Origin: Cyclobacteriaceae bacterium
GTDB taxonomy: Bacteria; Bacteroidota; Bacteroidia; Cytophagales; Cyclobacteriaceae
NCBI GenBank assembly: GCA_016787605.1
Contig: JAEUUE010000116.1
Location: 1-64,000 of the forward strand
Length of the DNA: 64,000 nucleotides
Direction: 5' to 3'
Below are positions 20,766-34,800 of the stretch, piece by piece (positions within the stretch are counted from its first letter, which is position 1; each line of letters starts with the position of its first letter). A program made the translations under genes and the position numbers. Under the pieces are notes generated by a model that was given only the letters and a program-made list of their open reading frames with translations, did not search any database and was not told the origin of the DNA.

Positions 20766-20924
20766 GGTGAGTCGTCACTCGCTCCTCGTCATTCGTTTCT
20801 CGTCGCCTATGATGCGATACTCGTTGGCCGTTCGGCTAAAGTTCTGTGAGTGGTTTCAGAACTTGCTCCGTAGGTCATGGTCGAGTGGCGAGAAGCGAGT
20901 AGCGAGCAACGAGCGGCGAGCACC
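20766..20924. repeat. large imperfect inverted repeat built of CGAG-type units
   Basis: The left arm (20766-20807) reads on its reverse strand as a run of GACGAG/AACGAA/GACGAG-like units. The right arm (20881-20924) is a run of GGCGAG/AAGCGAG/AGCGAG/AACGAG units, and the arms pair over about 40 bp with roughly 80 percent identity. Between them lies a perfect 8-bp hairpin, AAGTTCTG (20839-20846) with CAGAACTT (20857-20864), and a small GCCG-TT-CGGC hairpin. The element starts directly after the ftsZ stop and may act as an mRNA end structure. It resembles a palindromic intergenic repeat, not a CRISPR. Confidence 0.6.
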
Positions 20925-21020
20925 CAAGGCATGGCACATCTGGCGTGACTGGTCATTTACTCCATTCGTAGTGGTTGTTGGCAGTAAATATTTTTTGCCG
21001 GCGCCAGAGTGCCTTCTTTT

Positions 21021-21117
21021 TGACCGGGCGACTGTTGGCAGTCGTCGGTGGCTGCGTCCTATTCCTCCCCGCCGCGTGTGGGGAGGGTTCGACGTGTGGC
21101 CCCGGTGATTTTTTAGC
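21021..21117 (+). ncRNA. possible structured non-coding RNA
   Basis: ACCGGG (21023-21028) can pair with CCCGGT (21101-21106), closing a domain that holds two perfect hairpins: CGACTG-ttgg-CAGTCG (21029-21044) and CCTCCCC-9 nt-GGGGAGG (21064-21086). A T-run follows (21109-21114). A second copy of the closing strand, CCCGGTC (21122-21128), matches GACCGGG perfectly, so two exclusive closures are possible. I see no convincing coding frame. A Bacteroidota 6S-type RNA or an attenuator are possibilities; the sequence alone does not decide. Confidence 0.3.
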
Positions 21118-21147
21118 TGCTCCCGGTCGAAGGTTTTTTTAACCTGG

Positions 21148-21180
21148 AAAGCCGCCTGTACGAGGGCGGCTTTCTGCTTT
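21148..21180 (+). terminator. rho-independent terminator
   Basis: AAAGCCGCC (21148-21156) pairs perfectly with GGCGGCTTT (21165-21173) across an 8-nt loop, followed by CTGCTTTT. It closes the ftsZ-distal non-coding region. From here to the ATG at 21500 (about 320 bp, noticeably A+T-richer) I see no gene, only the presumed promoter region of the next operon. Confidence 0.65.
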
Positions 21181-21499
21181 TGGGAGGCGCTGGCATAGTT
21201 ATCCTCCGGATCCACAAGACTCAAAATCATTGTAATCAGTGAGACAAGAAAGATAGTTAAGGTATCTTGCGTAAGGAGATTGAAGAAGTATCAGGAACGC
21301 CTGGATCACAGTTGGTAATGTTTGTCTCCGACAGTTGGATTGTGTATTTTGGCTACTAATCAATGATGGGTGATTTGGATGGGATACGAGATTGAAATTT
21401 CGGATCGATTACTTGGTCATTAGGTGACTTTTGTCCCGCGCCTACGGTTACCATCAAGCACATGGCTTGGTTGTCAAGGCTTCTTAATTAGTAGTTGCA

Positions 21500-22324
21500 A
21501 TGCCGAACGATTCGCTAGGTCAGGAAAGTGAAGTGGTGAATATCGGTCAATGGGAACACGTGGATGTTCCAATACTTTTGACATTGCTCCCCGTGGTGGT
21601 GGCTTTTGCTTTTGTGGTATTTGTGCTCTATCGTTCGAGGCGGGAGGCTTATTTCAAAGAAAAGGAGACTTCCTTTAGACTGACCATTGCGGAAATGGAG
21701 ATGAAGGTTCTCCGTTCCCAGGTTAACCCCCACTTTATCTTCAATTGCTTAAATTCCATTCAACATTTTATTCACGGAAACAACAGTACTGCTGCCAGTG
21801 AGTATTTAGTCAAATTTTCACGCTTGATTCGGCATGTCTTGGAGGCATCCCATGAGCGACTGATACCCCTGTCGGAAGAAATCTTGGCGCTTACGTTATA
21901 CTTGGAATTGGAGCAATTGCGTACTCGGGGAGCCTTCAACTTTGAGTTTCTTATTGACGAGAAAATCAAGTCGGATGAGTTTTATGTTCCGCCTCTTTTC
22001 GTTCAGCCGTTGGTGGAGAACGCTATATGGCATGGCCTTGCTAACCGATCTGAAGGAGGCGTTATCAGATTAACTCTTGAATTGGCGGAGGGGATGTTGA
22101 AGTGGACCATTGATGATAATGGTGGTATTGCCGAAAGGAAGTTGAAACCCTATGATTTATCTGCCTTTGTGAAGCGAAACTCCCGGGGGCTAGAGCTGAT
22201 CGAAGATCGCATCGCTGTGATTAATAGGATTTATGCAATAGATAGGCATGGTCCTGCGCAATTGACGCGTGATAAGTTGCCGGAGGGAACCCGGGTTACC
22301 ATAACGTTGCCCTATGAGAACTGA
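21500..22324 (+). CDS. LytS/YehU-type sensor histidine kinase
   Basis: 274 residues. One transmembrane helix (about 24-44) and a short linker precede a His_kinase (PF06580) domain with the phosphoacceptor His78 in 'QVNPHFIFNCLNSIQHF'. The HATPase region has its N-box at 'PLVENAIWHGL' (Asn174) and a G-box 'TIDDNGG'. There is no periplasmic sensor domain, so the signal probably comes from a membrane partner. The gene overlaps the LytTR regulator by 11 bases, giving a two-component pair. Base composition is clearly more A+T-rich than the dcw genes. Confidence 0.92.
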   Translation: MPNDSLGQESEVVNIGQWEHVDVPILLTLLPVVVAFAFVVFVLYRSRREAYFKEKETSFRLTIAEMEMKVLRSQVNPHFIFNCLNSIQHFIHGNNSTAASEYLVKFSRLIRHVLEASHERLIPLSEEILALTLYLELEQLRTRGAFNFEFLIDEKIKSDEFYVPPLFVQPLVENAIWHGLANRSEGGVIRLTLELAEGMLKWTIDDNGGIAERKLKPYDLSAFVKRNSRGLELIEDRIAVINRIYAIDRHGPAQLTRDKLPEGTRVTITLPYEN

Positions 22325-23072
22325 GCCATATCGTGTAGTGATCGTGGAAGATGACCTTGATCAGCAAGACCTGTTGATTCAATGGTTGAATGACTATGGA
22401 AATTTTGAAGTTTTGGCCGTTGCCAGGGATGTACCTTCCGGCATCAAAGCGCTTTCCCAATCTCATCCTGATTTGGTTATTCTCGATGTACTGTTGCCAC
22501 CTGGCAATTGCTTTGAGTTGTTGGAGGCGCTGGAGCATTTTACATTCAAGATCATTTTTACAACAGCATTTGATGGTTACGCTATACGGGCTTTCCGGCT
22601 TGCGGCTGTCGACTACCTGCTGAAGCCTTTGGATCGTACGGAGTTTTTCTTGGCAATTCGAAGATTTGAGAGTTTGATTGAGGTCAAGGATCACCTATCA
22701 AGAGTGCATATGGTGCTGGCTAGTATCAGAGGGAATGCGGCTGGAGGAGAACGGGCAGCCCTCCCGACACTAAAGGGCTTTATTTCCGTGCCAATCCGGG
22801 ATATTGTGCGATGTGAGTCGGATAATACCTATACGAGCGTTTTTACCGTAGACAAGCGAAGATTGGTCATTTCAAGAACGTTGAAGGAGTGTGAGCGACA
22901 GCTTCAGGAGTTTAATTTTTGCCGGGTTCATAATTCTCACCTGGTGAACTTGATTCATGTAGTTGAGTACCAAAGAGGGGAGGGGGGCGTAATCCGGATG
23001 ATCGACGGTTCCACAATTGACGTATCGCGTCGTCGAAAAGACGAATTTCTTCGCCGTTTCAACATGCTCTGA
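22314..23072 (+). CDS. LytTR-family DNA-binding response regulator
   Basis: 252 residues. The receiver domain (about 6-125) has the acidic pocket E12-D13-D14, the phosphoacceptor Asp58 in 'DLVILDVLLPPG' and a Lys in 'LLKPLD'. A C-terminal LytTR domain (about 150-250) has 'RDIVRCESDNTYTSV' and 'FCRVHNSHLVNL', both conserved in the family. It is the partner of the LytS-type kinase upstream. Targets are unknown; the three genes immediately downstream are candidates by position. Confidence 0.93.
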   Translation: MRTEPYRVVIVEDDLDQQDLLIQWLNDYGNFEVLAVARDVPSGIKALSQSHPDLVILDVLLPPGNCFELLEALEHFTFKIIFTTAFDGYAIRAFRLAAVDYLLKPLDRTEFFLAIRRFESLIEVKDHLSRVHMVLASIRGNAAGGERAALPTLKGFISVPIRDIVRCESDNTYTSVFTVDKRRLVISRTLKECERQLQEFNFCRVHNSHLVNLIHVVEYQRGEGGVIRMIDGSTIDVSRRRKDEFLRRFNML

Positions 23073-23182
23073 GTAATCCCGTATTCTACGGTTTATTGAC
23101 CAGAGCCTTAACCCAAACCGCCAAACGCTAATTGGTGGTTCTTTCCGCCTGAACGCTGTCTTAGCTTCGTTTGAGATTATCT

Positions 23183-23494
23183 ATGAGAACCCCGAAGCTT
23201 GTTGTCTCAGTCTACGCAGGAGCCAGTACCTTATGGCTTTATTTGGATGACCAACTTATCCTTAGAGACAGTTCTGAAGCTACAATTGAGCTGCTGCCGG
23301 GTTCGGAATATGTCGTTTTCTGGTATGTGAAGGGCCTTCCGGGTAGTACGTATTCCATCTGCATTTCTTCACCTCGCGAAGCAGAATATCAGCTTACCAA
23401 GACCCTGTTGGGCTCTGGAAAAGACCATGGCTCTCTACTTTTCTCCATCCATGCGGGTAGGTCAACCGTGAAATCAAATCCTGTACCATCATGA
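23183..23494 (+). CDS. small protein of unknown function
   Basis: 103 residues from the ATG at 23183; an in-frame TTG at 23171 would add four. No signal peptide, transmembrane helix or known motif. The predicted content is mainly beta strand, with several aromatics ('YVVFWYVKGLPGSTYSI'). The stop overlaps the ATG of the lipoprotein gene (ATGA), which argues that this frame is translated. I do not recognise the family. Confidence 0.55.
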   Translation: MRTPKLVVSVYAGASTLWLYLDDQLILRDSSEATIELLPGSEYVVFWYVKGLPGSTYSICISSPREAEYQLTKTLLGSGKDHGSLLFSIHAGRSTVKSNPVPS

Positions 23495-24315
23495 AGCGAC
23501 TAACTAAATCCATGACCGTAATTCTGCTGAGCCTTGCATCGTGCGGCCAGCCTGAACCAACAAGCGATGTGGCTTTGCGGACTACAGACAGTGCCGGGAT
23601 CATTCCCATCGGTGGCCATGCTCACCTGTTTCCGACCGACTCATCAGTAAGGCTGATGTTTAACCTGGTTAGCTCAGCTCAATTGGCTAAATACAGTGAG
23701 AATTTTGGTTGGGGCGGCAGTTTCCCTGCATCTGCTTTTCGGGTATCCGCGATTAACCAGGGAGTTATGCTATGGTACTGTTTTCGAGGCGGTTCAAGAC
23801 CTGACCTTTTTTTGGCCCTGGAACACCTGGAGGAGTACGACCCGCATAACCTTCCACGGGGACCTATACAGACGGAATTGACGGTGCCTACAGCCATTTT
23901 CCGAGTGAATCCCGAATCCCTGAAAAGTGAAAGCGATATTCGTGACTACCTCAAGGAGACCGGAGATGTTTCTGGTTGGAAAACATTGAACGCCGGAGAG
24001 ATAAGGCGATATATTGCCAGTGCGGACTCCCTCTTCACTCTATATCCCGACATCCATGGGGAACGCTATAACAGTTATATGTTTGGCTTCTTTTCCGCTC
24101 GTCACGAGGCTGCCTTCGATGCCTTTATTGCGTCTGCGGGAGAAAATGGGTATATTCGTTACTATTTTGGCTATGACGAACGAGAAAGACCAAACCGAAT
24201 TCGCATTATCCTGATGGCCGTGAATGCCAAGGGGGTAAATCAAGCTATGGCCAGGGTCAGCGAAGAAGGATATGGTACAATGCAGCGCTCTTGGCCCCCT
24301 CCACCAATTGATTGA
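23491..24315 (+). CDS. putative lipoprotein of unknown function
   Basis: 274 residues. The N-terminus 'MKRLTKSMTVILLSLASCGQ' is a lipoprotein signal with a lipobox ending at Cys18; no Asp follows the Cys. The mature part has no motif I know; it is rich in aromatic residues and has a Tyr-rich C-terminal half. It overlaps the small gene upstream by 4 bases and the membrane protein gene downstream by 44. The arrangement suggests a surface or periplasmic component working with the LytS/LytTR pair, but this is inference from order only. Confidence 0.7.
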   Translation: MKRLTKSMTVILLSLASCGQPEPTSDVALRTTDSAGIIPIGGHAHLFPTDSSVRLMFNLVSSAQLAKYSENFGWGGSFPASAFRVSAINQGVMLWYCFRGGSRPDLFLALEHLEEYDPHNLPRGPIQTELTVPTAIFRVNPESLKSESDIRDYLKETGDVSGWKTLNAGEIRRYIASADSLFTLYPDIHGERYNSYMFGFFSARHEAAFDAFIASAGENGYIRYYFGYDERERPNRIRIILMAVNAKGVNQAMARVSEEGYGTMQRSWPPPPID

Positions 24316-24973
24316 TGATTTCTTCTTAGACGCTTCGCTTCTAAAGATTGTATCTACACTTTCTATAATTTTTCCTTTAGGTTGGAGCGGTGCAAGACTC
24401 AAGTCATCCGGCTATTTCGGAAAGGTATTTTTCTGCTTTCTATTGCTGGGCCTGGTAGCGGATGTCCTGGGTTGGTGCGTAAATGCTCTGCGACCGGCCA
24501 ATGAATTCATACACGTGTTCAATTCTTATGCGCTGGCGGAAGCATTGTTCTTCTTCTGGCTTGTCCGATCCCTCTCAACGGCCTCGGCTTTACGGCGGTT
24601 GTCCTTTTTCTTCCTGGTTTGTGCGCCAGTCTCATGGCTTGTAGTTCTGGCATGGCCGGTCTTCAAGACTGGAAAGCTTGGACAAATTATGCCATTCATC
24701 GTTGCGTATGAAGTGATCATATCCTTTCTTGCCGGGTTTGGCTTGTTGGAATTAGCTGAGAAAGAGACTCATTTGTTGTATTCCTGGCGCTTCTGGTTCT
24801 TGATGGGTGTATTCTTCTATTGTTTCTGCACTTTCTTTGTCATGGCTTTTCTTGGCAAGGAATTGCTTTTTAGTTTGTGGCCCATAAATAACATGATCAA
24901 CATCTTAACCTACCTTTTTTACTGTCTGGGTTGGTGGCGGTATGGGCAGCCCCGTCAGCAGCCTATGGCATAG
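24272..24973 (+). CDS. seven-helix membrane protein of unknown function
   Basis: 233 residues, almost all in seven hydrophobic segments separated by short loops, with many Phe and Trp; the C-terminus is short and cytoplasmic. There is no catalytic motif. The start is uncertain: the ATG at 24272 overlaps the lipoprotein gene by 44 bases, and an in-frame TTG at 24308 is an alternative. Seven-helix proteins of this size accompany kinases in Bacteroidota, so a sensory role is a reasonable guess. The 279 bp after it hold no gene I can support. Confidence 0.65.
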   Translation: MVQCSALGPLHQLIDDFFLDASLLKIVSTLSIIFPLGWSGARLKSSGYFGKVFFCFLLLGLVADVLGWCVNALRPANEFIHVFNSYALAEALFFFWLVRSLSTASALRRLSFFFLVCAPVSWLVVLAWPVFKTGKLGQIMPFIVAYEVIISFLAGFGLLELAEKETHLLYSWRFWFLMGVFFYCFCTFFVMAFLGKELLFSLWPINNMINILTYLFYCLGWWRYGQPRQQPMA

Positions 24974-25252
24974 TCGCAGGATCACCCTCTCCGTTTTCCA
25001 TCTTGAGTCCACCGATTTTCGGCTTGAACTTGCCGGATTCTAATCGGGGTTCAGGTTTTGGATTTAAGGTTGTACTTTGTTGAACACCCCGAAGCGCGCA
25101 TCCGGTGTCGGAATTTCTTGTATCGGATTGCAGCAAGTATTTGATAGCTGGCCAAAACTCCCCGTTGAGATACGGAGGAGGATCATTGTTAGTATGAAGG
25201 AACTGAAGATGGCCTGATTGGAGAAGAGGCGAGAGTATTGCGCATATGGGAT

Positions 25253-28200
25253 ATGGGGAACGAGACGATTGATTTTAGATTGCTTTTTGAGTCCGCACCG
25301 GGGCTCTATCTCGTATTGACGCCCGACTTTACTATTGTCGGGGCAAGTGATGCCTATTTGTCTGCTACTTTGACCAAGCGGGAAGGCATTGTAGGTAGAA
25401 ACCTGTTCGAGGTGTTCCCTGACAATCCAAATGATCCTTCCGCAGACGGTGTGAGGAATCTTCAATCGTCCCTTAATTACGTGCTGCATAATAAAGGCAT
25501 CCATAAGATGGAGATCCAGAAGTACGATATCCAGCTACCTGACGGAAATTTCGAGGCGCGCTATTGGGGTCCGATGAACATTCCTGTGTTGAATGAAGGT
25601 GGGGAGGTGGTTTACATAATTCACAATGTAACCGATTTGACGGCGCAGGAGTTCGCGAAAAGGGAGAGCCAGGCGTCCACGCGAAAAGCTCAATTGCTGC
25701 TGCAGTCCTGCATCGAGAGCCTTCAAGACATCCTGGTGTTTTCAGTTGACAAGGAATTCCGCATTCTGCATTTCAATTACGCTTTTAAGCAAGCTACGGC
25801 CCAGGCATACGGCAGCATCGTTGAAACAGGCGTTAGCCTGCTTGACTGTATAACCAACAAGGAGGATCGTTCAAAGGCCAAAGTGAATCTCAAAAGAGCC
25901 ATGAGCGGAGAAAAGCTGGTAACTGTGCAGGAGTTTGGAGAGCTGGACAGAAGCTATTTTGAGACGCGATATAATCCGCTGATCAATGACGAGGGAGAGA
26001 TCATAGGCGCTACAGTGCTGACTGCCAACATTACAGACCGAATGAGGACGGAGCGGGAGATTCGCAGACTGGCCTCCATTGTGGATTCCAGCTTCGATGC
26101 CGTCTTCAGTAAGGCGCTGGATGGTAGCATTATCAGCTGGAACAAAGGAGCGGAACGACTGTTTGGCTATAGCGAGAAAGAAGCCATTGGGAGGGATAGC
26201 AGGGTGCTTATGGAAGATAGCGAATACGCACGGGAAGCATCTGTTGTTTCAAGGGTGATTGCAGGTGAAATGGTCGATCACTACGAGACCGTTCGTGTAC
26301 ACCGTGATGGGAGAAAAATAGACGTGTCGCTTTCTATTTCGCCGCTAAAGGATCAGCAAGGCAACGTGGTAGGCATATCCAAGATTGCCCGTGACATAAC
26401 AGACCGTAAGCAAGCCGAGGAGAGTATCCGTATCATGAATGTTCAGTTAGAAGAGGCCAGAAGAATCGCCGAGCTGGCTAATCAAACCAAGAGCCAATTT
26501 CTGGCGAATATGTCGCACGAAATCCGTACGCCCCTCAATGCAGTAATCGGCCTGACACACTTGCTCATGCAAACGGAGTTATCTGCCAAGCAAAAGGACT
26601 ACCTCGATAAGATCGGGTCATCCAGTGATTCCCTGCTCCGGATCATCAATGATATCCTTGACTTCTCCAAGGTGGAGGCGGGGAAGCTGACATTGGAGGA
26701 GAGCAACTTTGACCTGGAGGAGGTTTTTCAGCAATTGGGAAACCTCATTACCTACAAGGCAAATGCTAAGGGACTGGAAGTGGCTTTCGGAATTGAGAGC
26801 CAAGTCCCGACCTACCTGATTGGAGATTCCGGAAGATTGGAGCAAATATTGATGAATCTCTGCAGTAACGCCGTTAAGTTCACGGATCGGGGAGAGGTAA
26901 TCGTTGATGTGAAGTTGGCGGGTGAAGAAGGTGACCGGGTGAATCTGGCTTTTTCTGTCCGTGACACCGGTATTGGCATGGATCAGGTTCAGATCAGTCG
27001 GCTGTTTCAGCCCTTTATCCAGGCCGACAATACCATTACTAGAAAATATGGAGGAACGGGACTTGGCTTGTCGATCATCAAGCGGCTGGTGGAACTCATG
27101 GATGGAACGGTCGCTGTGGAAAGTTCGCCCGGCCGTGGCAGCCGTTTCCACTTCAATATCTGGCTGAAAAAGCAAATCTATCAGCGCAAGATGCCCATAC
27201 CCTCGGTGGATTTGCGTAAGTGGCACGTCCTGCTGGTTGATGACAATGAGGCTGCCCGGAACATTCTTAAGGAGGCCCTGGGATCATTGTCTTTCCGGAT
27301 TACTGCTGTTAGTTCTGGGGTTCAGGCTATTCACTACCTCAAGAACAATTTTCACCATGATCCCGTAAAGCTAATCCTGATGGATTGGAGTATGCCTGAG
27401 ATGGACGGTATTGAGACCGCGAGGATCATCCGGGCGGACGATCAGTTGCAGGGCATTAAGATCATGATGATCTGTTCCAGCTATACCAATGATGCCTTGC
27501 TTCAAAGTATGGATGAAATGGGGATTTCTGCAATCCTGACCAAGCCTATTCGGTATTCCCATTTGTACGATTCTATTGTACGAGCCATGGAAGATGGTAC
27601 AAAGAGACATGTGCGAGTGGAAAAAAGCAAGGTCATTTCGGCCAATCACCATGAGGGTAACCTGCTTCTTGCGGAGGACAATGAGATAAACCAGTTGGTC
27701 GCCATTGAACTGCTTCAGGGGTTCGGGTTCAAGGTGACCGTGGCGCATAACGGGCAAGAAGCCGTACAAATGGTGGAGCAAAGCTTCAGAAAGGGATCTC
27801 TATATGACCTTGTTCTTATGGACGTCCGAATGCCGATCATGGGCGGCCCCGATGCTTCGCGGGAGATCCGAAAACTGAGGGGGTGCGAGGAGGTACCCAT
27901 TATCGCGATGACCGCAGATGCTATGGTAACCGTGAAGGAAGAATGCCTAGCTGCGGGAATGAATGACTTTGTAAGCAAGCCAATCAATCCCAACACGCTA
28001 TTGGAGACGATCGAAAAGTGGCTCTCCGTAAGAAGAAGACCAGTCGCCATGAGAAACGAAAGGACCTCATCCGAGGAGAATATTCCTCAGGGAATCGATT
28101 TGGCCCTGGGCCTTTCATATGTCGGTGGCAACCGGAGATTTTACCGGGAGTTGTTGAATAAGTTCATTGCTGACCACAAGAATTATACAAATGAGCTCAA

Positions 28201-28426
28201 GACCCTGATTGATTCCGGGGTGCGCGAGGAGGCAATACGATTGGTCCACTCGCTCAAGGGCACGGCCGGGAGTTTGGGTATGACACGCCTCCATAACCTT
28301 AGTAAAGAGTTACAGGAGATTCTTACGATTGGGTCGACTAGTGATGTAGATAAACTTGCGAAGGGATTAAAAGATGAGTTGGACTCAGTCATGAAAGGAA
28401 TAAGTCAACTAGATAAAACAGAATAA
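25253..28426 (+). CDS. hybrid sensor histidine kinase: 3 PAS, HisKA, HATPase, 2 receivers, HPt
   Basis: About 1057 residues from the ATG at 25253; a TTG 15 bases upstream is less likely. No transmembrane helix, so cytoplasmic. Order: three PAS-type domains (about 1-390), HisKA with His422 in 'NMSHEIRTPL', HATPase (about 465-640, G-boxes 'DTGIGM' and 'GGTGLGLSI'), receiver 1 with Asp711 in 'LILMDWSMP', receiver 2 with Asp857 in 'LVLMDVRMP', and a C-terminal HPt with His999 in 'LVHSLKGTAGSLGM'. All phosphorelay residues are present. The stop overlaps the next ATG (TAATG). The likely output is the HPt and receiver-cyclase proteins encoded directly downstream. The ligand of the PAS domains is unknown. 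Confidence 0.93.
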   Translation: MGNETIDFRLLFESAPGLYLVLTPDFTIVGASDAYLSATLTKREGIVGRNLFEVFPDNPNDPSADGVRNLQSSLNYVLHNKGIHKMEIQKYDIQLPDGNFEARYWGPMNIPVLNEGGEVVYIIHNVTDLTAQEFAKRESQASTRKAQLLLQSCIESLQDILVFSVDKEFRILHFNYAFKQATAQAYGSIVETGVSLLDCITNKEDRSKAKVNLKRAMSGEKLVTVQEFGELDRSYFETRYNPLINDEGEIIGATVLTANITDRMRTEREIRRLASIVDSSFDAVFSKALDGSIISWNKGAERLFGYSEKEAIGRDSRVLMEDSEYAREASVVSRVIAGEMVDHYETVRVHRDGRKIDVSLSISPLKDQQGNVVGISKIARDITDRKQAEESIRIMNVQLEEARRIAELANQTKSQFLANMSHEIRTPLNAVIGLTHLLMQTELSAKQKDYLDKIGSSSDSLLRIINDILDFSKVEAGKLTLEESNFDLEEVFQQLGNLITYKANAKGLEVAFGIESQVPTYLIGDSGRLEQILMNLCSNAVKFTDRGEVIVDVKLAGEEGDRVNLAFSVRDTGIGMDQVQISRLFQPFIQADNTITRKYGGTGLGLSIIKRLVELMDGTVAVESSPGRGSRFHFNIWLKKQIYQRKMPIPSVDLRKWHVLLVDDNEAARNILKEALGSLSFRITAVSSGVQAIHYLKNNFHHDPVKLILMDWSMPEMDGIETARIIRADDQLQGIKIMMICSSYTNDALLQSMDEMGISAILTKPIRYSHLYDSIVRAMEDGTKRHVRVEKSKVISANHHEGNLLLAEDNEINQLVAIELLQGFGFKVTVAHNGQEAVQMVEQSFRKGSLYDLVLMDVRMPIMGGPDASREIRKLRGCEEVPIIAMTADAMVTVKEECLAAGMNDFVSKPINPNTLLETIEKWLSVRRRPVAMRNERTSSEENIPQGIDLALGLSYVGGNRRFYRELLNKFIADHKNYTNELKTLIDSGVREEAIRLVHSLKGTAGSLGMTRLHNLSKELQEILTIGSTSDVDKLAKGLKDELDSVMKGISQLDKTE

Positions 28427-29310
28427 TGTTGCGACAATGGTTAAATAGAATTTTTGGGCCGACGCCAAATTATGCGGTTGGGGACACCGTACAGCCTGTT
28501 TCGGGTGTGCGTGAACTCATGGTAATAACTAGAATTATTATCGAAAATGATACGCCCCGGTTGCATTGTCATTGGTTGGACTCGGTAACCCAAGAGAAGC
28601 GGGAGCGATGGTTTTCGGAGAGTGAACTTGAACCTTTTGATTGGCGCCGGCCCATGCAAAGCACATCGCTCAGCAGCCGGACGATGGGACTGGAGCGGCG
28701 TGGTGATTCGGTCCAATTCGAGAGCCAGCCAGCAATGGAGGAGTTTGATGGCGTTGATGTTCAGCAGGGACTTTCCCATCTAATGGGCAACCAGGAGCTT
28801 TTTGAGAAAATGCTAAGGAAGTTTGCGGATCAGCAGAGTGATTTTGTGGAAGAAATTAATAGGAAGATTACTGGTGGTGAATGGGAGGAAGTACGGAGGA
28901 TGGCCCATACGTTGAAAGGCTTGGCAGGAACATTGGGTATGACTAATCTCCAAAGCCTTTCTAGTCAGCTAGAGACTGAATCGTTACGGAGGGATGCCGG
29001 TGCTCTGCCTGCCCCTGTTGCTCAATTGTCTGCAGAATTGAGTAAGATCATCCGATCCATCCGGTCCACTATCAAGGAACATCCAAGTGTAGTAGAAGTT
29101 CCCAAGCCCTCCAACCTCGGTTCTGCCTTGGATAAGTTGGAGAAGACCTTATTGGATGGCAACCCAGATGCCCTAAGGCATCTGGATGGAATCGGCAGAA
29201 TTGAAGGTTGTGAAAGGGAACTTGGCGACTTGCGAAAATCTGTGGACGCCTACCGGTTTGACCATGCGTCAGAAGTTCTAAGAACTATTAGGAACAGGAT
29301 TAAGGCATAA
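28426..29310 (+). CDS. HPt phosphotransfer protein with N-terminal DUF2158 (YodC)-like domain
   Basis: 294 residues. Residues about 15-72 look like a small DUF2158/YodC-type barrel: 'VGDTVQPVSG' followed by 'CHWLD' and 'WFSESELEPF'. A HPt domain follows (about 105-200) with His161 in 'AHTLKGLAGTLGM', closely similar to the HPt at the end of the upstream kinase. The last 90 residues are helical and unassigned. It is coupled to the kinase gene (TAATG) and lies 17 bases before the receiver-cyclase gene, the position expected of a phosphotransfer intermediate. The DUF2158 call is by eye. Confidence 0.8.
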   Translation: MLRQWLNRIFGPTPNYAVGDTVQPVSGVRELMVITRIIIENDTPRLHCHWLDSVTQEKRERWFSESELEPFDWRRPMQSTSLSSRTMGLERRGDSVQFESQPAMEEFDGVDVQQGLSHLMGNQELFEKMLRKFADQQSDFVEEINRKITGGEWEEVRRMAHTLKGLAGTLGMTNLQSLSSQLETESLRRDAGALPAPVAQLSAELSKIIRSIRSTIKEHPSVVEVPKPSNLGSALDKLEKTLLDGNPDALRHLDGIGRIEGCERELGDLRKSVDAYRFDHASEVLRTIRNRIKA

Positions 29311-29327
29311 GAAAAAGATCGAAATAC

Positions 29328-30494
29328 ATGGGGTTGGAGCTAAACATTCTGAACAAGAGCATATTGATTGTGGATGATACGCCGGCAAACCTCGATGTGC
29401 TAAATGAGATTCTAAGGAATTTCAAAAGAACGGTGGCTACCGACGGTATTCAGGCACTGAAACTGACGCTAAACGGCGCTGCTCCAGACCTCATTCTGTT
29501 AGATATTGAAATGCCTGGAATTAGCGGATTTGAGGTTTGCCGTCAGCTGAAAAGTAACCCTGAGACGGCAAGAATCCCAGTCATTTTTCTTACCAGTAAT
29601 TCCGACAAACGAGTTACGGTTGAAGGATTCAAGCTTGGCGCTTCGGACTTCATGACTAAGCCGTTTGACCCGGATGAGCTAATGGTCAGGATACGAACGC
29701 AATTGGAGTTGGCGGACTCACGCAATCGCCTGGAAGCCATGCTCTATCAAATGGAGGTCAGTTCCGATCTACTCAAAAGCGCGGGTGACGAATTGCTTTT
29801 ACAGAAGACCGAGTTGGAAGAATCGAGGCGTAAGTCGGACTCTTTACTTCTCAATGTGCTGCCAGGTGAAATAGCGGATGAACTGAAGACTAAAGGTTCT
29901 GTTACCCCCCGCCATTATCCTATGGCTTCTGTGCTGTTTGCCGATCTGGTAGGATTTACACGGATCAGCGTGGGGCTTTCTCCGAAGGACTTGCTGGACG
30001 AACTCGGGAATTTGTTTTTCGAGTTCGACAAGATCATTGAAAAGTGCAACATGGAGAAGATAAAGACGTTGGGCGATGGTTATATGGCAGCGGGTGGCCT
30101 GCCGGTAAAAAACAGCTCAAACCCGGTGGATTCTGTTTCGGCTGCTCTTGAAATGGTGGAATGTGTAAGTGAACGAAAGCAGGCCAACCTGCAGAAAGGT
30201 TTCCCGCCATGGGATATACGGATTGGAGTCCACACCGGGCCGGTGGTGGCGGGTGTTATTGGGAAGAGCAAGTTTTCCTATGATATCTGGGGTGCGACAG
30301 TAAATACCGCCAGCAGAATGGAGGCGGCTAGTGAGGCTGGCAAGGTCAATATTTCGGGCATCACCTACCAGTTGGTAAAGGACAAGTTTGTGTGTACTCC
30401 GAGGGGTAGTATCGAAGTCAAGAATATGGGTAAAATGGACATGTACTTTGCAGAGCGGAGAATGGCAGGTACCGACTTGTTTCGGTTGACATGA
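29328..30494 (+). CDS. receiver-domain class III adenylate cyclase
   Basis: 388 residues. The receiver domain (about 8-125) is intact, with phosphoacceptor Asp59 in 'LILLDIEMPG' and TKPF. A short coiled linker leads to a class III cyclase domain (about 195-380). Metal-binding Asp206 (FADLVGFT) and Asp250 (LGDGYM) are present. Lys246 in 'EKIKTLGDG' and Asp319 in 'YDIWGATVN' match the adenine-selecting Lys and Asp of adenylate cyclases, not the Glu and Cys of guanylate cyclases. The 'NTASRME' Asn and Arg are also intact. cAMP production controlled by phosphorylation is therefore likely. A cNMP-binding protein is encoded two genes downstream. Confidence 0.92.
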   Translation: MGLELNILNKSILIVDDTPANLDVLNEILRNFKRTVATDGIQALKLTLNGAAPDLILLDIEMPGISGFEVCRQLKSNPETARIPVIFLTSNSDKRVTVEGFKLGASDFMTKPFDPDELMVRIRTQLELADSRNRLEAMLYQMEVSSDLLKSAGDELLLQKTELEESRRKSDSLLLNVLPGEIADELKTKGSVTPRHYPMASVLFADLVGFTRISVGLSPKDLLDELGNLFFEFDKIIEKCNMEKIKTLGDGYMAAGGLPVKNSSNPVDSVSAALEMVECVSERKQANLQKGFPPWDIRIGVHTGPVVAGVIGKSKFSYDIWGATVNTASRMEAASEAGKVNISGITYQLVKDKFVCTPRGSIEVKNMGKMDMYFAERRMAGTDLFRLT

Positions 30495-30539
30495 GCACGA
30501 TGAAATATCTACCCATTAACATTAACTAATTCAAAGCTT

Positions 30540-31940
30540 ATGAAACAGGATTCTAACTTCTTCATGGTAGCTCTGTTTTTTATGGCCTCAATGGGCCTGA
30601 GTTTTGCACAGCAAGATCAATCCCTTGGCGGTGGCCAGATCAACTTGGCACAAAATATCGAGACGGCGATTATTGCAGAGCCGCTCAATGGAAGAGTAAA
30701 CACACCGTTTATTGAGTATGGGCCAACGTTGACCAAAGATGGGAAGCGACTTTATTTTAGTCGCCAAGGGTTCGCCGGAAATGTTGGAGGGGTGGAAGAT
30801 GAAGATATCTGGTTTAGCATTTTTGATGAAGCCACCCAGGACTGGTTGGAGGCAAAGAATATCGGTCCTCCATTGAATACCGAGGGACCCAATTTCGTTT
30901 GTGGCGTGGGTGTAAATGGTGACACCATTTTGTTGGGAAACGTGTACAGCAAGCGGGGAAAGATGAAAGCTGGACTTTCTCTTTCAATTAAGGAGGGCGA
31001 TACCTGGTCCTTTCCCCAGCCGGTAGCCATTCGAAATGACTACAATCTTTCGGAGCGTGCAAGTTTCGACGTGTCAAATGATCGAAAGGCCCTGCTGATT
31101 GCCCAACGCAAAGTTGATTCCCATGGAGGGCTTGATCTTTATGTGGCATTGAGAAATTCGGAATCTAAGTATCCATACGCGGCCAAGGAGAGCATTAATT
31201 TGGGGCCCGTGATTAATTCGGTTGGCGACGAAACTTCTCCTTTTCTCGCTTATGACAATAAGACACTTTACTTTGCCTCCAATGGTCATAATGGCTACGG
31301 TAAATTTGACATTTTTGTTTCACGCAGACTGGATGACACCTGGACGAATTGGACGAAGCCTGAAAATCTGGGTGCAGGCATTAATACGCCCTTTGATGAC
31401 ACTTTTTTTGGGTTTACTCCAAGGAGCAGATATGCATACTATTCCCGAGGGTTAACCCCAACGAACACGGACATCTATCGACTGGATATGACCTATCTGT
31501 TTAAGCCAAGTTCAAAGCCGCTGGATCAAATGGACGAGCTTATCGATGCCGCTCAAGTAGGGCAGTCCCTAGTTCTTGATTCTGTGTTTTTGGATGATAA
31601 CTATGAAATGCGCCCGGAGTCGATGCGCAAGATGAGGTATATACTCAGCTATATGAAATTCTTTAGAAACTACCGGATACTGATCACTGCCCATTCGAAC
31701 AAGCACGACTCGCGTGATATAAGCCATGTGCTTTCCGTGGCGAGGGCCGTAAAAGTTGTCGACTTCCTTGTGGGCAATGGGATTGATAGAGACCGACTGG
31801 AGTTCCAGGGATATGGACATGATGTGGTGGTGAACATGGATAATCTACCAACATTGAAAAGTATGAAGTCGCGGGTAGCCTCCTCAGTAGAGTTTCGCCT
31901 AATCGGATACACAGCCGGAAGCCAGACGACCTTTCGGTAA
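30540..31940 (+). CDS. PD40 beta-propeller / OmpA-like secreted protein
   Basis: 466 residues. A signal peptide (about 1-23, ending SFAQ) precedes WD40-like PD40 repeats (about 55-320) marked by 'DGKRLYFSRQ' and 'NKTLYFASNGHNGYGKFDI', then a C-terminal OmpA-like domain (about 335-460). In the peptidoglycan-binding site the usual GHTD is 'AHSN', so the diaminopimelate-contacting Asp is Asn387. The Arg of LSxxRA is kept as Arg402, exactly 15 residues later as in A. baumannii OmpA (D271, R286). The 'NRRVE' end is also degenerate. It may bind peptidoglycan weakly or not at all. It lies in a tightly spaced set with the cyclase (45-bp gap). Confidence 0.85.
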   Translation: MKQDSNFFMVALFFMASMGLSFAQQDQSLGGGQINLAQNIETAIIAEPLNGRVNTPFIEYGPTLTKDGKRLYFSRQGFAGNVGGVEDEDIWFSIFDEATQDWLEAKNIGPPLNTEGPNFVCGVGVNGDTILLGNVYSKRGKMKAGLSLSIKEGDTWSFPQPVAIRNDYNLSERASFDVSNDRKALLIAQRKVDSHGGLDLYVALRNSESKYPYAAKESINLGPVINSVGDETSPFLAYDNKTLYFASNGHNGYGKFDIFVSRRLDDTWTNWTKPENLGAGINTPFDDTFFGFTPRSRYAYYSRGLTPTNTDIYRLDMTYLFKPSSKPLDQMDELIDAAQVGQSLVLDSVFLDDNYEMRPESMRKMRYILSYMKFFRNYRILITAHSNKHDSRDISHVLSVARAVKVVDFLVGNGIDRDRLEFQGYGHDVVVNMDNLPTLKSMKSRVASSVEFRLIGYTAGSQTTFR

Positions 31941-31984
31941 ATAGTTCAGGTGGGCCTAGTCAGCAACTGTCGCTTCGTATTGGA

Positions 31985-33178
31985 ATGAAAGGCGGATTGG
32001 AAATAGTGAGACCCCATAGTATTCGCAACCATCCTGTATTCAAGGGCTTGCAGGATGATGAACTCGTTAAGGTTTGTTCTTTTTTTGAGTTTGAAACCTT
32101 GAGTGACAACCAATGGCTGCTGCAAGAGGGTAAGGGCACTTCTTCTGAACTTTATCTTGTTGTTTCGGGGCAGTTAGAAATAGTGCGTAGAGTTGAAGAG
32201 AGCCCAGGGTCCGGATTGCGGGGTTTGCATGAGCGAGGGTTTAATGTAGCTGTTCTTTCAGAAGGGGATGCCTTTGGTGAGTTGAGCTTCGTCGATGGCG
32301 GGTATCGCTCGGCAAGTGTGCGGTGTATCACTAATGCGAAACTCCTGAAACTTTCTAAAGAAAGCTATCAACAGTTAGAGGGCTTGTATCCCAAGTTATC
32401 CGGTTGTCTAATGCGAAACCTGGTTGGAGTTACAGGGAGAATGCTGAAGAAGACCACAGATAATGAAATTATCATTCTGAGGAGAGAGTTGGAAGGCGCT
32501 CAAATGCAGTCCAAGTCGAATCTCTTCTTCTCTTATGTGATAGGGCTCCTATGTGTATATAACCTCGCCATCCAGCAGCTGACAAGTCTTTCAATGGATT
32601 CGAGTCGTGCATCTTTGCTGAGCGCCGCGGTCATACTGATTTTTTGTGGTGCCCTTGCTCTCATGATCCATCAAAGTAAACTGCCTATTCAGTTCTTTGG
32701 CCTCACGACACGAAATTGGAAGAAGGCCCTGGGCGAATCTGCGGCCTGGTCATTTGCTCTCATTTCTGTTCTGGTAGTGGTAAAGTGGATGTTGATCATG
32801 TATGTTCCACGTTACCATTACTTGGAAGTGTTTTCTTTTGACTTTGCGCATACTAGGTATCTTGCCTTTAATTTTATCCTGTATGGGCTTCATTCGCCAC
32901 TTCAAGAGTTTATTGTTCGTGGTGTGTTGCAAGGCAGCCTTCAGCGTTTTTTTAAAGGTCGTAATGTTACGTTTAGGGCAATTCTAATTTCTAACGCAAT
33001 ATTTTCAGCTACGCACGTTCATTTGCTGGGTGGCCTCTTTGGTGCCATTGTGTTTGTTCCTGGTCTTTTCTGGGGTTGGATGTATGCCCGCCACCAGAAT
33101 CTGATTGGTGTGAGCCTCTCCCACATGTTAATCGGCTGGGCAGCACTTTTTTTTCTCAGTTTAGAGAGTTTATTCTAA
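31985..33178 (+). CDS. cyclic nucleotide-binding domain fused to a CPBP (Rce1-like) membrane domain
   Basis: 397 residues. An N-terminal cNMP-binding domain (about 10-150) has an intact phosphate-binding cassette, 'GDAFGE' at 94-99 and Arg108 in 'YRSASV'. After a helix come about six transmembrane segments of CPBP (CAAX protease/bacteriocin-processing) type. Motif 1, normally EExxxR, is QEFIVR (Gln307, Glu308, Arg312). Motif 2, FxxxH, is intact (Phe340, His344). The last motif has His380, but Gly384 where Asn or Asp is expected. By comparison with Rce1, where the first Glu is catalytic, the domain may be inactive or altered. It is a plausible cAMP effector for the cyclase two genes upstream. 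Confidence 0.82.
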   Translation: MKGGLEIVRPHSIRNHPVFKGLQDDELVKVCSFFEFETLSDNQWLLQEGKGTSSELYLVVSGQLEIVRRVEESPGSGLRGLHERGFNVAVLSEGDAFGELSFVDGGYRSASVRCITNAKLLKLSKESYQQLEGLYPKLSGCLMRNLVGVTGRMLKKTTDNEIIILRRELEGAQMQSKSNLFFSYVIGLLCVYNLAIQQLTSLSMDSSRASLLSAAVILIFCGALALMIHQSKLPIQFFGLTTRNWKKALGESAAWSFALISVLVVVKWMLIMYVPRYHYLEVFSFDFAHTRYLAFNFILYGLHSPLQEFIVRGVLQGSLQRFFKGRNVTFRAILISNAIFSATHVHLLGGLFGAIVFVPGLFWGWMYARHQNLIGVSLSHMLIGWAALFFLSLESLF

Positions 33179-33185
33179 AGGTCTC

Positions 33186-34763
33186 ATGCTGCGAGCCCGG
33201 AGAGTATCGACGATGCTGGTTCTTGCTTTACTTATTAAGGCAAGCCTGATTGGGTTGGCTAGTGTGTTAACCATTGACATACCGCGATTCATAGGACTCA
33301 CTGACTCCGGTCATGCTTCGCTGATTGCGTATGCGCCAGAAGTGTGGCTTGCATTGCTGGCCCTTGTGTTTGGCACTCTGATTATTGTCGTATCGATTGC
33401 TTCGGAAAATACACCAAGACTAGTTGACATATTTATTGGCGACGCATGGGGAAGACTTTATATATGGGTTATCATGTTTTCAACGCTTGAGAATGTCCTG
33501 CTTCAGTTGGCAACGGCCAATCCGGCAATGTTCTGGTCAAATATGATGTTTATTAACAATTATGTCCTGCTTCCTCTTGTCCTTTTGTTTGCCATTCCTT
33601 TCACGTTTCACATTCTGAAACTGACCAAGAATACCAATGTTATAGCCTACATTTTCGAGGAGAATATTCATGCGATTCATCATTCGTCGACAACTAACAA
33701 AAAGGCTATTGAGCAGAGTCAGATGGTGCTGTTCGAAACGCTTAACCAAATGCATGACCTGCTTCAGTATATACAGTTTAAAGAGCCAAAAGGAGACATT
33801 ATCAGCAGATTGGGGAGGTCGGTACGGCATTATCTCATGGCAAAACGGTCCTTCCCTGACCAATTTTTCGGATTGAGCCAATATGTTAAAGATGACATTT
33901 CGTTTCGAACACTGCAAGAGAGGTATCAGAAGATTGAAAGCAGCAAGATATTCTATGAGCAAAAGGCCTTATGGGTTCTCAATGCGGTTTATCTGCATGT
34001 AATCGACGAAGGGCATCCTGATTTGGCTTCCATGTGCGGTTATGAGCTCTCTGAAATTGGAAGGACAGCCATCCAGCAGAATGACCTTGCCGTTACCGAA
34101 GCGGCTATCATGGAGTTTAATACACTGCTCCGAAATGGGATCAATCATGCATTGAAGTCGAAAGAAATAGGAAATGCTTTTAATATAATTCATCACTACA
34201 ATCAACTGATTTTTGCACTGATTGAGAATAAGGACGAAATGAGGGTTGAGCGTTGTTGCCATTACATGAGCCGATATGGAGAAGAATTATACAGGCTAAG
34301 CGAGATGGAGCCACAGCTGAAGTTCCTTGTTGATGTGATTGCATGGGCATTAAAAAAGAATGTGATGTACTTGGTTGAAAGGGAGTTCTCCAAAAACATA
34401 CAGCAAGATGTGTTGAGAGGATTCTGCAACTTGAGTGAGATAAGCCAAGCAACACGTGGAGTCAAGGGGGGGCTTAGGCTAATCAAAATCTCCCTATGTC
34501 TATTCTACATGAGTAAAGATGATTATGGCTCGGTAAATTCCATAGTTGATTCCTTGTCTAATCAGTGGAAGGTGGGAGGCAGCGAATCTCTGCTTAGAGA
34601 ATGGGAAGAAAGTTACGCAAGATTAATAGCAGAGAACGAGACATTTTGGGAAGGAACTGACCGTGGGATTGTCAACATTTATTTTACAGGTCACCAGGAT
34701 CAGATTCCTCGCCTTCGGGAGCACGTTCAGGTTCGTATTGGGAACCAAGAATCTGTGCACTGA
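33186..34763 (+). CDS. membrane protein with large helical cytoplasmic domain, unknown function
   Basis: 525 residues. Four transmembrane segments lie in the first 145 residues (about 10-30, 48-70, 92-112, 125-145). They are followed by about 370 mostly helical residues without a recognisable enzyme motif and with several His-rich turns (HAIHH, IIHHYN). The stretch 'SIASENTPRLVDIF' between the second and third helices recalls DUF2254 proteins, but I am not sure. It starts 7 bases after the cNMP-CPBP gene, so the two are surely co-transcribed. It is the last gene of the A+T-rich island and among its most A+T-rich. Confidence 0.75.
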   Translation: MLRARRVSTMLVLALLIKASLIGLASVLTIDIPRFIGLTDSGHASLIAYAPEVWLALLALVFGTLIIVVSIASENTPRLVDIFIGDAWGRLYIWVIMFSTLENVLLQLATANPAMFWSNMMFINNYVLLPLVLLFAIPFTFHILKLTKNTNVIAYIFEENIHAIHHSSTTNKKAIEQSQMVLFETLNQMHDLLQYIQFKEPKGDIISRLGRSVRHYLMAKRSFPDQFFGLSQYVKDDISFRTLQERYQKIESSKIFYEQKALWVLNAVYLHVIDEGHPDLASMCGYELSEIGRTAIQQNDLAVTEAAIMEFNTLLRNGINHALKSKEIGNAFNIIHHYNQLIFALIENKDEMRVERCCHYMSRYGEELYRLSEMEPQLKFLVDVIAWALKKNVMYLVEREFSKNIQQDVLRGFCNLSEISQATRGVKGGLRLIKISLCLFYMSKDDYGSVNSIVDSLSNQWKVGGSESLLREWEESYARLIAENETFWEGTDRGIVNIYFTGHQDQIPRLREHVQVRIGNQESVH

Positions 34764-34800
34764 GAATAATTTTGACCCTCTCTATAATCGGATCATGCGG

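What the first reader, a model, noticed from the sequence alone, without database searches (positions are those of the whole stretch)
25253..34763. Possible phosphorelay-to-cAMP-to-membrane-effector pathway
Six closely spaced genes encode, in order, a hybrid kinase with all phosphorelay residues, a HPt protein, a receiver-cyclase with adenylate-specific Lys246 and Asp319, an exported PD40/OmpA-like protein, a cNMP-binding domain fused to a CPBP membrane domain, and a membrane protein. The largest gap between them is 45 bp. Signal detection, cAMP synthesis and a cAMP receiver are thus in one set. I know of no described system with this chain.
Basis: partly seen in the sequence, partly recalled or inferred. 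Interest (0 to 1): 0.75.

Follow-up and report, generated by a model that had tools for sequence, protein, structure and literature searches.

The report
Kinase, adenylate cyclase, CNB-CPBP gene block
A block of six adjacent bacterial genes, probably acquired from elsewhere, sets a kinase-controlled maker of the messenger cAMP beside a membrane protein built to bind such a messenger; the full set was not seen in the other genomes sampled, but its halves recur separately and the membrane protein belongs to a family scattered over distant bacteria.

Summary
In detail: six same-strand genes (25253-34763; largest gap 45 bp) encode a soluble PAS hybrid kinase (HisKA-REC-REC-HPt), an HPt protein, a receiver-adenylate cyclase with its six catalytic residues including Lys246/Asp319, a PD40-OmpA protein, a CNB-CPBP membrane protein and a DUF2254-like membrane protein. 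They lie in a 14-kb low-GC accessory block between ftsZ and kdsB. The kinase-to-cyclase half is well supported: the two closest cyclase relatives are kinase-REC-cyclase fusions. The cyclase-to-CNB-CPBP half is not conserved: none of 12 other CNB-CPBP loci has a class III cyclase in the flanks fetched, and of 9 other stand-alone REC-cyclases one (L126) has a membrane-fused CNB gene nearby, of a different type. New here: CNB-CPBP proteins also occur in Alphaproteobacteria, Legionella, a Gemmatimonadetes and an Opitutae MAG; their CPBP motif is QE, never EE (13 of 13); in one the CNB signature is replaced by a receiver; neighbours include kinases, phospholipid genes or a cyclic-nucleotide phosphodiesterase-like gene. 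Most likely a cAMP-sensing, non-classical CPBP regulator. New variant of a known kind; chain unproven.

The parts
25253..28426 (+). Soluble hybrid histidine kinase, 1057 aa: PAS regions - HisKA - HATPase_c - REC - REC - HPt (possible TTG start at 25238)
   Evidence: ORF; Pfam; residues; no hydrophobic segment
28426..29310 (+). HPt protein, 294 aa; Hpt domain at residues 129-206, His161; no Pfam match for the first 117 residues
29328..30494 (+). Response-regulator class III adenylate cyclase, 388 aa: REC (Asp59) + catalytic domain (Asp206, Lys246, Asp250, Asp319, Asn326, Arg330)
   Evidence: nearest relatives are kinase-REC-cyclase fusions
30540..31940 (+). PD40 propeller + OmpA-like protein, 466 aa, with an N-terminal hydrophobic segment (probably exported); similar to the CHU_0125 and PorE models of NCBIfam, far below their cut-offs
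31985..33178 (+). CNB-CPBP membrane protein, 397 aa: cNMP_binding (38-131; cassette FGELSFVDGGYRSASV from residue 97) + Rce1-like (297-383; motifs QEFIVR, FSATH, SHMLIG)
   Evidence: distant full-length relatives
33186..34763 (+). Membrane protein, 525 aa, distant DUF2254-like; three hydrophobic segments in the first 140 residues and a long remainder; homologues in 17 other genomes of the order are not beside a REC-cyclase or CNB-CPBP gene
20766..34800 (.). Low-GC accessory block between ftsZ (18942-20765 +) and kdsB (34801-35559 -): GC 0.472 against 0.561 in the rest of the window; GC3 0.46-0.58 in the six genes and the four upstream genes measured, 0.70-0.82 in five flanking genes
21500..23072 (+). 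LytS-type kinase (21500-22324) and LytTR regulator (22314-23072) in the same block; not shown to belong to the pathway

Best explanation
A horizontally acquired signalling block in which a cytoplasmic PAS-domain hybrid kinase drives a His-Asp-His-Asp relay (its own REC/HPt and/or the separate HPt protein) to the receiver of an adenylate cyclase; the cAMP made is sensed locally by the CNB domain of the neighbouring CNB-CPBP protein. That protein is most likely not a standard CAAX-type protease (its first catalytic Glu is Gln in every family member seen) but a ligand-gated membrane regulator or chaperone acting on a membrane partner, the best candidate being the adjacent DUF2254-like protein, with the PD40-OmpA protein linking the effect to the envelope. 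Shown by sequence: gene order, domains, catalytic and phospho-acceptor residues, foreign composition and variable site of the block, existence of the CNB-CPBP family. Inferred: operon transcription (about 0.85), adenylate cyclase activity (0.85), kinase-to-cyclase phosphotransfer (0.7), cAMP binding by the CNB domain (0.7), this cyclase feeding this CNB-CPBP protein (0.5), the CPBP domain acting without classical proteolysis (0.6), the partner being the DUF2254-like protein (0.3).
For: Six genes on one strand with gaps of -1, 17, 45, 44 and 7 bp. Phosphorelay and cyclase residues intact. The two closest relatives of the REC-cyclase are fusions 4HB-GAF-HisKA-HATPase-REC-cyclase (1289 aa, L124 and L125; 45% identity in both the REC and the cyclase part; domains run for L124). 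The two stand-alone REC-cyclases listed for the same order (L126, L127) each have a kinase gene adjacent. L126 also has an MFS-HEAT-CNB membrane protein beside the kinase: 1 of 2 stand-alone REC-cyclases against 0 of 46 other cyclase loci of the order with a membrane-fused CNB gene in the fetched flanks (p about 0.04; small and post hoc). The CNB cassette GE-x8-R is kept in 9 of 13 full-length CNB-CPBP members, the window's included; the CNB domain matches CRP-family, PKA-regulatory-subunit and SthK chains by sequence. In Legionella maioricensis the CNB-CPBP gene is followed on the same strand, 86 bp on, by an MBL-fold protein over the cut-off of Pfam Anti-Pycsar_Apyc1, a family named after a cyclic-nucleotide-degrading enzyme (activity recalled). 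QE, never EE, in 13 of 13 members. Precedents for CPBP proteins acting as signalling partners: Abx1, with its Glu and His residues dispensable (PMC3578759, passages), and SpdC (PMC5854430, passages).
Against: No other CNB-CPBP locus examined has a class III cyclase in its fetched flanks: 0 of 12. Full-length CNB-CPBP was matched only in the own genome among 39 relatives, 291 genomes of the order and 395 of the phylum (only a few candidates per genome were scored). Seven further stand-alone REC-cyclases in the phylum sample have no CNB gene nearby, and five of these (L243-L247) sit between UvrA-family and DAHP synthase genes with no kinase match nearby. In L127 the adjacent kinase is followed by an OmpR-type regulator. 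The own genome has three more cyclase places and six more CNB places, so cAMP need not be private. The DUF2254-like gene is in none of 17 other loci beside a REC-cyclase or CNB-CPBP gene; single kinase, receiver, PD40 or other-type cyclase matches occur in L029, L035, L042, L043, L044 and L045. Four of 13 family members lack the GE-x8-R cassette, so cNMP binding is not universal in the family.
Confidence: 0.45

Rival explanations
1. Coincidental neighbours on an accessory island: the kinase-HPt-REC-cyclase set and the CNB-CPBP plus DUF2254-like genes are separate cargoes brought together between ftsZ and kdsB. CNB-CPBP then answers to general cellular cAMP or to another ligand.
For: Each half recurs without the other. 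The block has foreign composition, and the ftsZ-kdsB interval varies: of 15 same-genus loci fetched, two (L269, L270) have ftsZ and kdsB separated by only two and one genes, one (L271) by about 15 kb of other genes, and twelve have no ftsZ within the stretch. Three further cyclase places and six further CNB places exist in the genome.
Against: Gaps of 45 bp or less through all six genes look tighter than unrelated cargo would be (inference; gaps). L126 shows an independent assembly of the same logic.
Confidence: 0.3
2. CNB-CPBP is a signal-gated membrane regulator of phospholipid or envelope homeostasis whose input can be a cyclic nucleotide or phosphorylation; in this genome its controlling kinase system came along, and the cyclase serves other targets.
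For: In three loci of the alphaproteobacterial sample: a run GDPD - desaturase - CNB-CPBP - CDP-alcohol phosphatidyltransferase (L181), CNB-CPBP 8 bp before a GDPD gene (L184), and a REC-CPBP form 112 bp before a CDP-alcohol phosphatidyltransferase gene (L183). Kinase genes lie nearby in L182 (directly upstream, same strand, a hybrid kinase with HPt), L183, L186 and L106. L183 has an N-terminal receiver and no recognisable CNB signature.
Against: Only 3 of 12 loci were seen to have lipid genes adjacent, and none is in the window block; neighbours of L110 other than a lone receiver protein were not identified, and those of the other loci only in part. Neighbours elsewhere are an MBL-fold gene (L105), DUF6962 (L106), a methyltransferase (L107), a ferritin-like gene (L108) and a B12-binding radical SAM gene (L185-L187).
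Confidence: 0.25
3. A Pycsar-like anti-phage system: a class III cyclase makes a cyclic mononucleotide that opens a CNB-transmembrane effector.
For: PADLOC Pycsar cyclase models match the cyclase (best E 5.5e-17) and Pycsar effector models match the CNB domain (best E 2.2e-05). The block is accessory and lies in a variable site.
Against: The matches cover only the cyclase or CNB domain. The cyclase carries the adenine-reading Lys/Asp pair and a receiver, beside a kinase relay. Of the other four proteins three match no PADLOC model, and the kinase matches two candidates weakly (PDC-M43B, E 1.9e-06, in its kinase core; SduA, E 0.0076).
Confidence: 0.05
4. CNB-CPBP feeds back on the histidine kinase through membrane contacts, as Abx1 and SpdC do.
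For: CPBP proteins Abx1 and SpdC bind kinases (PMC3578759, PMC5854430; passages). A hybrid kinase gene is directly upstream of CNB-CPBP in L182.
Against: Abx1 and SpdC contact transmembrane parts of kinases; the window kinase has no predicted hydrophobic segment, and the two cytoplasmic kinases of S. aureus did not bind SpdC.
Confidence: 0.1

Closest known systems
Cyanobacterial CyaC (adenylate cyclase activated by autophosphorylation and phosphotransfer; Kasahara and Ohmori 1999, seen here only as a reference title in PMC1183210)
   Same: Phosphotransfer controls an adenylate cyclase. The relative L124 has kinase, receiver and cyclase in one chain, as CyaC does (domain detail of CyaC recalled).
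   Different: In the window the parts are separate proteins with an added HPt protein, and a membrane CNB-CPBP gene follows.
Abx1 and SpdC (CPBP/Abi-domain regulators of histidine kinases; PMC3578759, PMC5854430, passages)
   Same: CPBP membrane domain used as a signalling partner; in Abx1 the catalytic residues are dispensable.
   Different: No cyclic-nucleotide-binding domain is mentioned in the passages read; they act through membrane parts of kinases.
Myxosortase MrtX / MmRce1 (glutamic-type CPBP proteases; PMC11980579, passages)
   Same: Rce1-like domain with conserved His motifs.
   Different: They have EExxxR and HxxxN motifs; the CNB-CPBP members have QE in place of EE.
CNB-fused membrane proteins (SthK channels; MFS-HEAT-CNB proteins such as L126)
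   Same: A CNB domain joined to a membrane domain.
   Different: The membrane domain is CPBP, not a channel or transporter.
Pycsar
   Same: Class III-like cyclase with a CNB-membrane protein nearby.
   Different: Adenine-type residues, receiver and kinase relay; no sign of defence function.

Membership tests
Phosphorelay-controlled class III adenylate cyclase | Intact catalytic residues with the adenine-reading Lys/Asp pair | tested here: met
   (residue roles recalled)
Phosphorelay-controlled class III adenylate cyclase | Receiver with phospho-acceptor Asp fused to the cyclase, kinase and HPt encoded beside it | tested here: met
   kinase-REC-cyclase fusions in L124/L125
Phosphorelay-controlled class III adenylate cyclase | Phosphotransfer changes cyclase activity | not testable with these tools
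   needs purified proteins
Glutamic-type CPBP intramembrane protease | EExxxR in motif 1 | tested here: not met
   QEFIVR in the window; of 13 full-length members 0 have EExxxR, 13 have QE, 12 have QExxxR. No survey of motif 1 in CPBP proteins at large was made.
Glutamic-type CPBP intramembrane protease | FxxxH motif and terminal His | tested here: met
   FSATH and SHMLIG in the window; His344 and His380 invariant in the 8-row alignment A2
cAMP-binding CNB protein | Phosphate-binding cassette with GE-x8-R | tested here: met
   FGELSFVDGGYRSASV
cAMP-binding CNB protein | Binds cAMP | not testable with these tools
   needs a binding assay
Conserved cyclase/CNB-CPBP pathway | Cyclase and CNB-CPBP genes co-occur in other genomes | tested here: not met
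   0 of 12 other CNB-CPBP loci have a class III cyclase in the fetched flanks
Pycsar | Pyrimidine cyclase plus CNB effector with defence activity | tested here: inconclusive
   cyclase residues point to adenine; only domain-level PADLOC matches; activity not testable
DUF2254 | Match above the Pfam cut-off | tested here: not met
   window protein 16.2 bits against 28.8; 11 of 17 members of A1 match DUF2254 at E <= 0.1, best 8e-06

The most novel reading that the evidence does not exclude
CNB-CPBP proteins are an undescribed, phylum-crossing class of signal-gated pseudo-proteases (QE in place of EE) in which cAMP or a receiver domain switches a membrane CPBP module that controls phospholipid or envelope partners; the window block is a self-contained, mobile kinase-to-cAMP-to-membrane circuit built on it, and L126 is an independent assembly of the same logic with a transporter-CNB effector.
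Probability: 0.25. Interest if true: 0.75.

Novelty: new variant of a known kind. Interest (0 to 1): 0.5.

Why it matters
Most work on bacterial cAMP concerns CRP-type transcription factors (recalled). A pathway in which a phosphorelay makes cAMP that acts directly on a membrane CPBP protein would join two-component and cAMP signalling without transcription, and would give a function to a CPBP branch that lacks the standard first Glu. CNB-CPBP genes were found here in the window's organism (phylum named by no call; PorE- and CHU_0125-like genes suggest Bacteroidota), Alphaproteobacteria, Legionella, and a Gemmatimonadetes and an Opitutae MAG, so the idea can be tested in a harmless organism.

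Tried and rejected
Opitutae L110: the 502-aa ORF after CNB-CPBP looked like a partner of the size of the window membrane protein, but it shows no similarity (blastp E 3.8, phmmer no hit) and its Arg-rich sequence looks antisense; rejected. Membrane partner as a guide to the operon: none of 17 loci with the DUF2254-like gene, some on short contigs, has a REC-cyclase or CNB-CPBP neighbour. Matches to the CNB-CPBP protein in 108 other phylum genomes cover only the CNB part or only the CPBP part and were not counted as members. Private second messenger: not supported, since the genome has other cyclase and CNB places. No structure could be predicted. A sequence search found no solved structure for the CPBP part. 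No promoter claim is made.

Limits: the genome search scored at most 6 candidates per genome for the cyclase, and drew samples; one search listed only part of its matches. One search searched with one protein and finds close relatives only; L107 and L108 are the same species. The CNB and cyclase HMMs were built from fetched matches and can miss degenerate domains. The 40 cyclase loci came from the longer list, taken from the top and by genome, not at random; with 8 loci fetched earlier they make the 48. Several loci of the CNB-CPBP set had Pfam run on few neighbours. Of the loci, L109 and L111-L116 (7 of 12) match only the CPBP part and were left out of the counts.

They changed: kinase HPt His is 999, not 998; L127's kinase has its own OmpR-type neighbour; UvrA and DAHP synthase neighbours confirmed in 5 of 5; L241's receiver confirmed; L106 also has a kinase nearby.
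Full report
Observation. All six genes are present where stated, on the + strand, with gaps of -1, 17, 45, 44 and 7 bp. Pfam confirms the domains named, except that the sixth protein is only a distant DUF2254 relative. The kinase (25253-28426) has PAS regions, HisKA, HATPase, two receivers and its own HPt domain (His999), and no predicted hydrophobic segment; it is probably a cytoplasmic sensor. The HPt protein has His161. The REC-cyclase has Asp59 in its receiver and Asp206, Asp250, Lys246, Asp319, Asn326 and Arg330 in its catalytic domain (residue roles recalled). Its best solved-structure matches are adenylyl cyclases. The CNB part of the fifth protein keeps a phosphate-binding cassette, FGELSFVDGGYRSASV, and matches CRP-family, PKA-regulatory-subunit and SthK chains by sequence.

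Setting. The left flank runs from a murD gene (11760) through ftsA to ftsZ, which ends at 20765; the right flank is a kdsB-like cytidylyltransferase and an NfeD gene ('kdsB' from Pfam CTP_transf_3 and by eye). The interval 20766-34800 has GC 0.472 against 0.561 for the rest of the window; GC3 is 0.46-0.58 in the ten block genes measured and 0.70-0.82 in five flanking genes. Of 40 genomes of the genus searched, 36 besides the own have the NfeD gene; I fetched the stretch beside it in 15. In two (L269, L270) ftsZ and kdsB are separated by only two and one genes, none of which matches a block protein; in a third (L271) by about 15 kb of other genes; in the other twelve ftsZ was not in the stretch, and in four of those (L272, L273, L276, L277) the gene beside NfeD does not match kdsB either. 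The site is variable and the block looks accessory. It also carries a LytS-type kinase and a LytTR regulator.

Kinase to cyclase. Among 291 genomes of the order, 66 (own included) have a match to the cyclase protein at E <= 1e-60, but apart from the window only four listed places align from the receiver on (the list was cut). Two (G126, G071) lie in proteins of 1289 aa; L124 has 4HB, GAF, HisKA, HATPase, REC and cyclase domains and L125 the same blastp pattern. This fusion is the best support that a kinase feeds this receiver. The other two (L126, L127) are stand-alone REC-cyclases, each next to a kinase gene; in L127 an OmpR-type regulator follows the kinase, so that kinase may serve it instead. 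In a sample of 296 genomes of the phylum there are eight more full-length places, seven of them stand-alone; two of the seven (L241, L242) have kinases nearby, and five (L243-L247) sit between UvrA-family and DAHP synthase genes with no kinase match in the stretch. So 4 of 9 have a kinase close by.

Cyclase to CNB-CPBP. Full-length CNB-CPBP was matched only in the own genome among 39 relatives, 291 order genomes and 395 phylum genomes (few candidates per genome scored). One scan of the species-genome collection gave 12 loci, five of them full-length: Legionella maioricensis, a Gemmatimonadetes MAG, two Novispirillum itersonii assemblies and an Opitutae MAG. A profile search of 240 genomes of the class of G695 (N. 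itersonii; Alphaproteobacteria) gave eight full-length places in seven genomes, seven of them new. I examined all 12 (L105-L108, L110, L181-L187). With an HMM built from fetched cyclases none of the 12 has a class III cyclase in its flanks. Flanks are under 1 kb on one side in L108, L110 and L185, and under 4 kb on one side in L182 and on the other side of L110. Of the six genomes behind L105-L110, five have class III cyclases somewhere (not Anaerobacillus, L109, whose protein lacks the CNB part), and the ten cyclase loci fetched there do not overlap L105-L110.

A parallel. In L126 (genome G041, same order, other family) an MFS-HEAT-CNB protein, a 7TMR-type kinase and a REC-cyclase lie in a row on one strand. 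Of 48 cyclase loci of the order other than the window that were scanned, it alone has a membrane-fused CNB gene in the flanks; three have soluble CNB genes (L191, L208, L226). Of the two stand-alone REC-cyclases of the order one has it, against 0 of 46 others (p about 0.04; small, post hoc). With the seven phylum cases it is 1 of 9.

What CNB-CPBP is. Of 13 full-length members (the window's and the 12 above) 13 have QE in motif 1, 12 QExxxR and none EExxxR; all 13 have an [FY]xxxH motif and a His near the C-terminus. L183 has a receiver in front and no recognisable CNB signature. In CPBP proteases motif 1 is EExxxR, the first Glu and a His activating water (PMC11980579, passages; PMC3578759, passages). 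A fixed Gln argues for a selected change rather than decay and for a role other than standard proteolysis; I did not measure how common QE is among CPBP proteins at large, and two CPBP-only relatives (L109, L131) have it too. Abx1 works with its Glu and His residues replaced and binds a kinase; SpdC binds ten of sixteen S. aureus kinases through membrane parts; LnsB is a CPBP relative without the catalytic motifs (PMC7387801, passages). Neighbours differ by lineage: GDPD, desaturase or CDP-alcohol phosphatidyltransferase genes in L181, L183 and L184; kinase genes in L182, L183, L186 and L106; a B12-binding radical SAM gene divergent from it in L185-L187; a ferritin-like gene in L108; an Apyc1-type MBL gene in Legionella. 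The last is the best hint, outside the window, that a cyclic nucleotide is the ligand in part of the family.

Judgement. The block most likely is a real relay-to-cAMP-to-membrane circuit, but the last step rests on adjacency in one genome; I put the whole chain at 0.45. The parts are known kinds in a new combination. Print: in the library searched, none of the 8 papers holds both 'cyclic nucleotide-binding domain' and 'CPBP'. Of the 15 papers, 12 were listed; none of these holds both 'cyclic nucleotide-binding' and 'Abi domain', and five hold 'cyclic nucleotide-binding' with 'CAAX', all on other subjects by title. The 2 papers do not hold 'CPBP'. This covers only that open-access library and those terms.

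Noticed in passing
L126:8631-15633: MFS-HEAT-CNB membrane protein, 7TMR-type kinase and REC-cyclase in a row on one strand: a parallel assembly of kinase, cyclase and membrane CNB protein.
   Followed up: partly
L183:9408-11078: A receiver domain in front of the CPBP module (556 aa) without a recognisable CNB signature, near a CDP-alcohol phosphatidyltransferase gene and a kinase gene; a CNB protein with a weak ZIP-transporter match lies close by (13917-15293).
   Followed up: partly
L105:9965-12096: Legionella maioricensis CNB-CPBP gene followed by an Apyc1-type MBL-fold gene (cyclic-nucleotide phosphodiesterase-like).
   Followed up: partly
L185:3897-6757, L186:7625-10418, L187:7641-10452: CNB-CPBP divergent from a B12-binding radical SAM gene in these three loci.
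   Followed up: no
L134:5017-11508 and L135:4800-12618: Twice in the own genome an MFS-HEAT-CNB protein is followed, directly or one gene on, by an nSTAND1 NTPase with WD40 repeats (Pfam).
   Followed up: partly
window 20766-34800: The ftsZ-kdsB interval is a variable site in the genus; here it carries a low-GC block that also holds a LytS/LytTR pair.
   Followed up: partly
L242:9203-11446: A REC-cyclase followed by an Apyc1-type MBL-fold gene.
   Followed up: no
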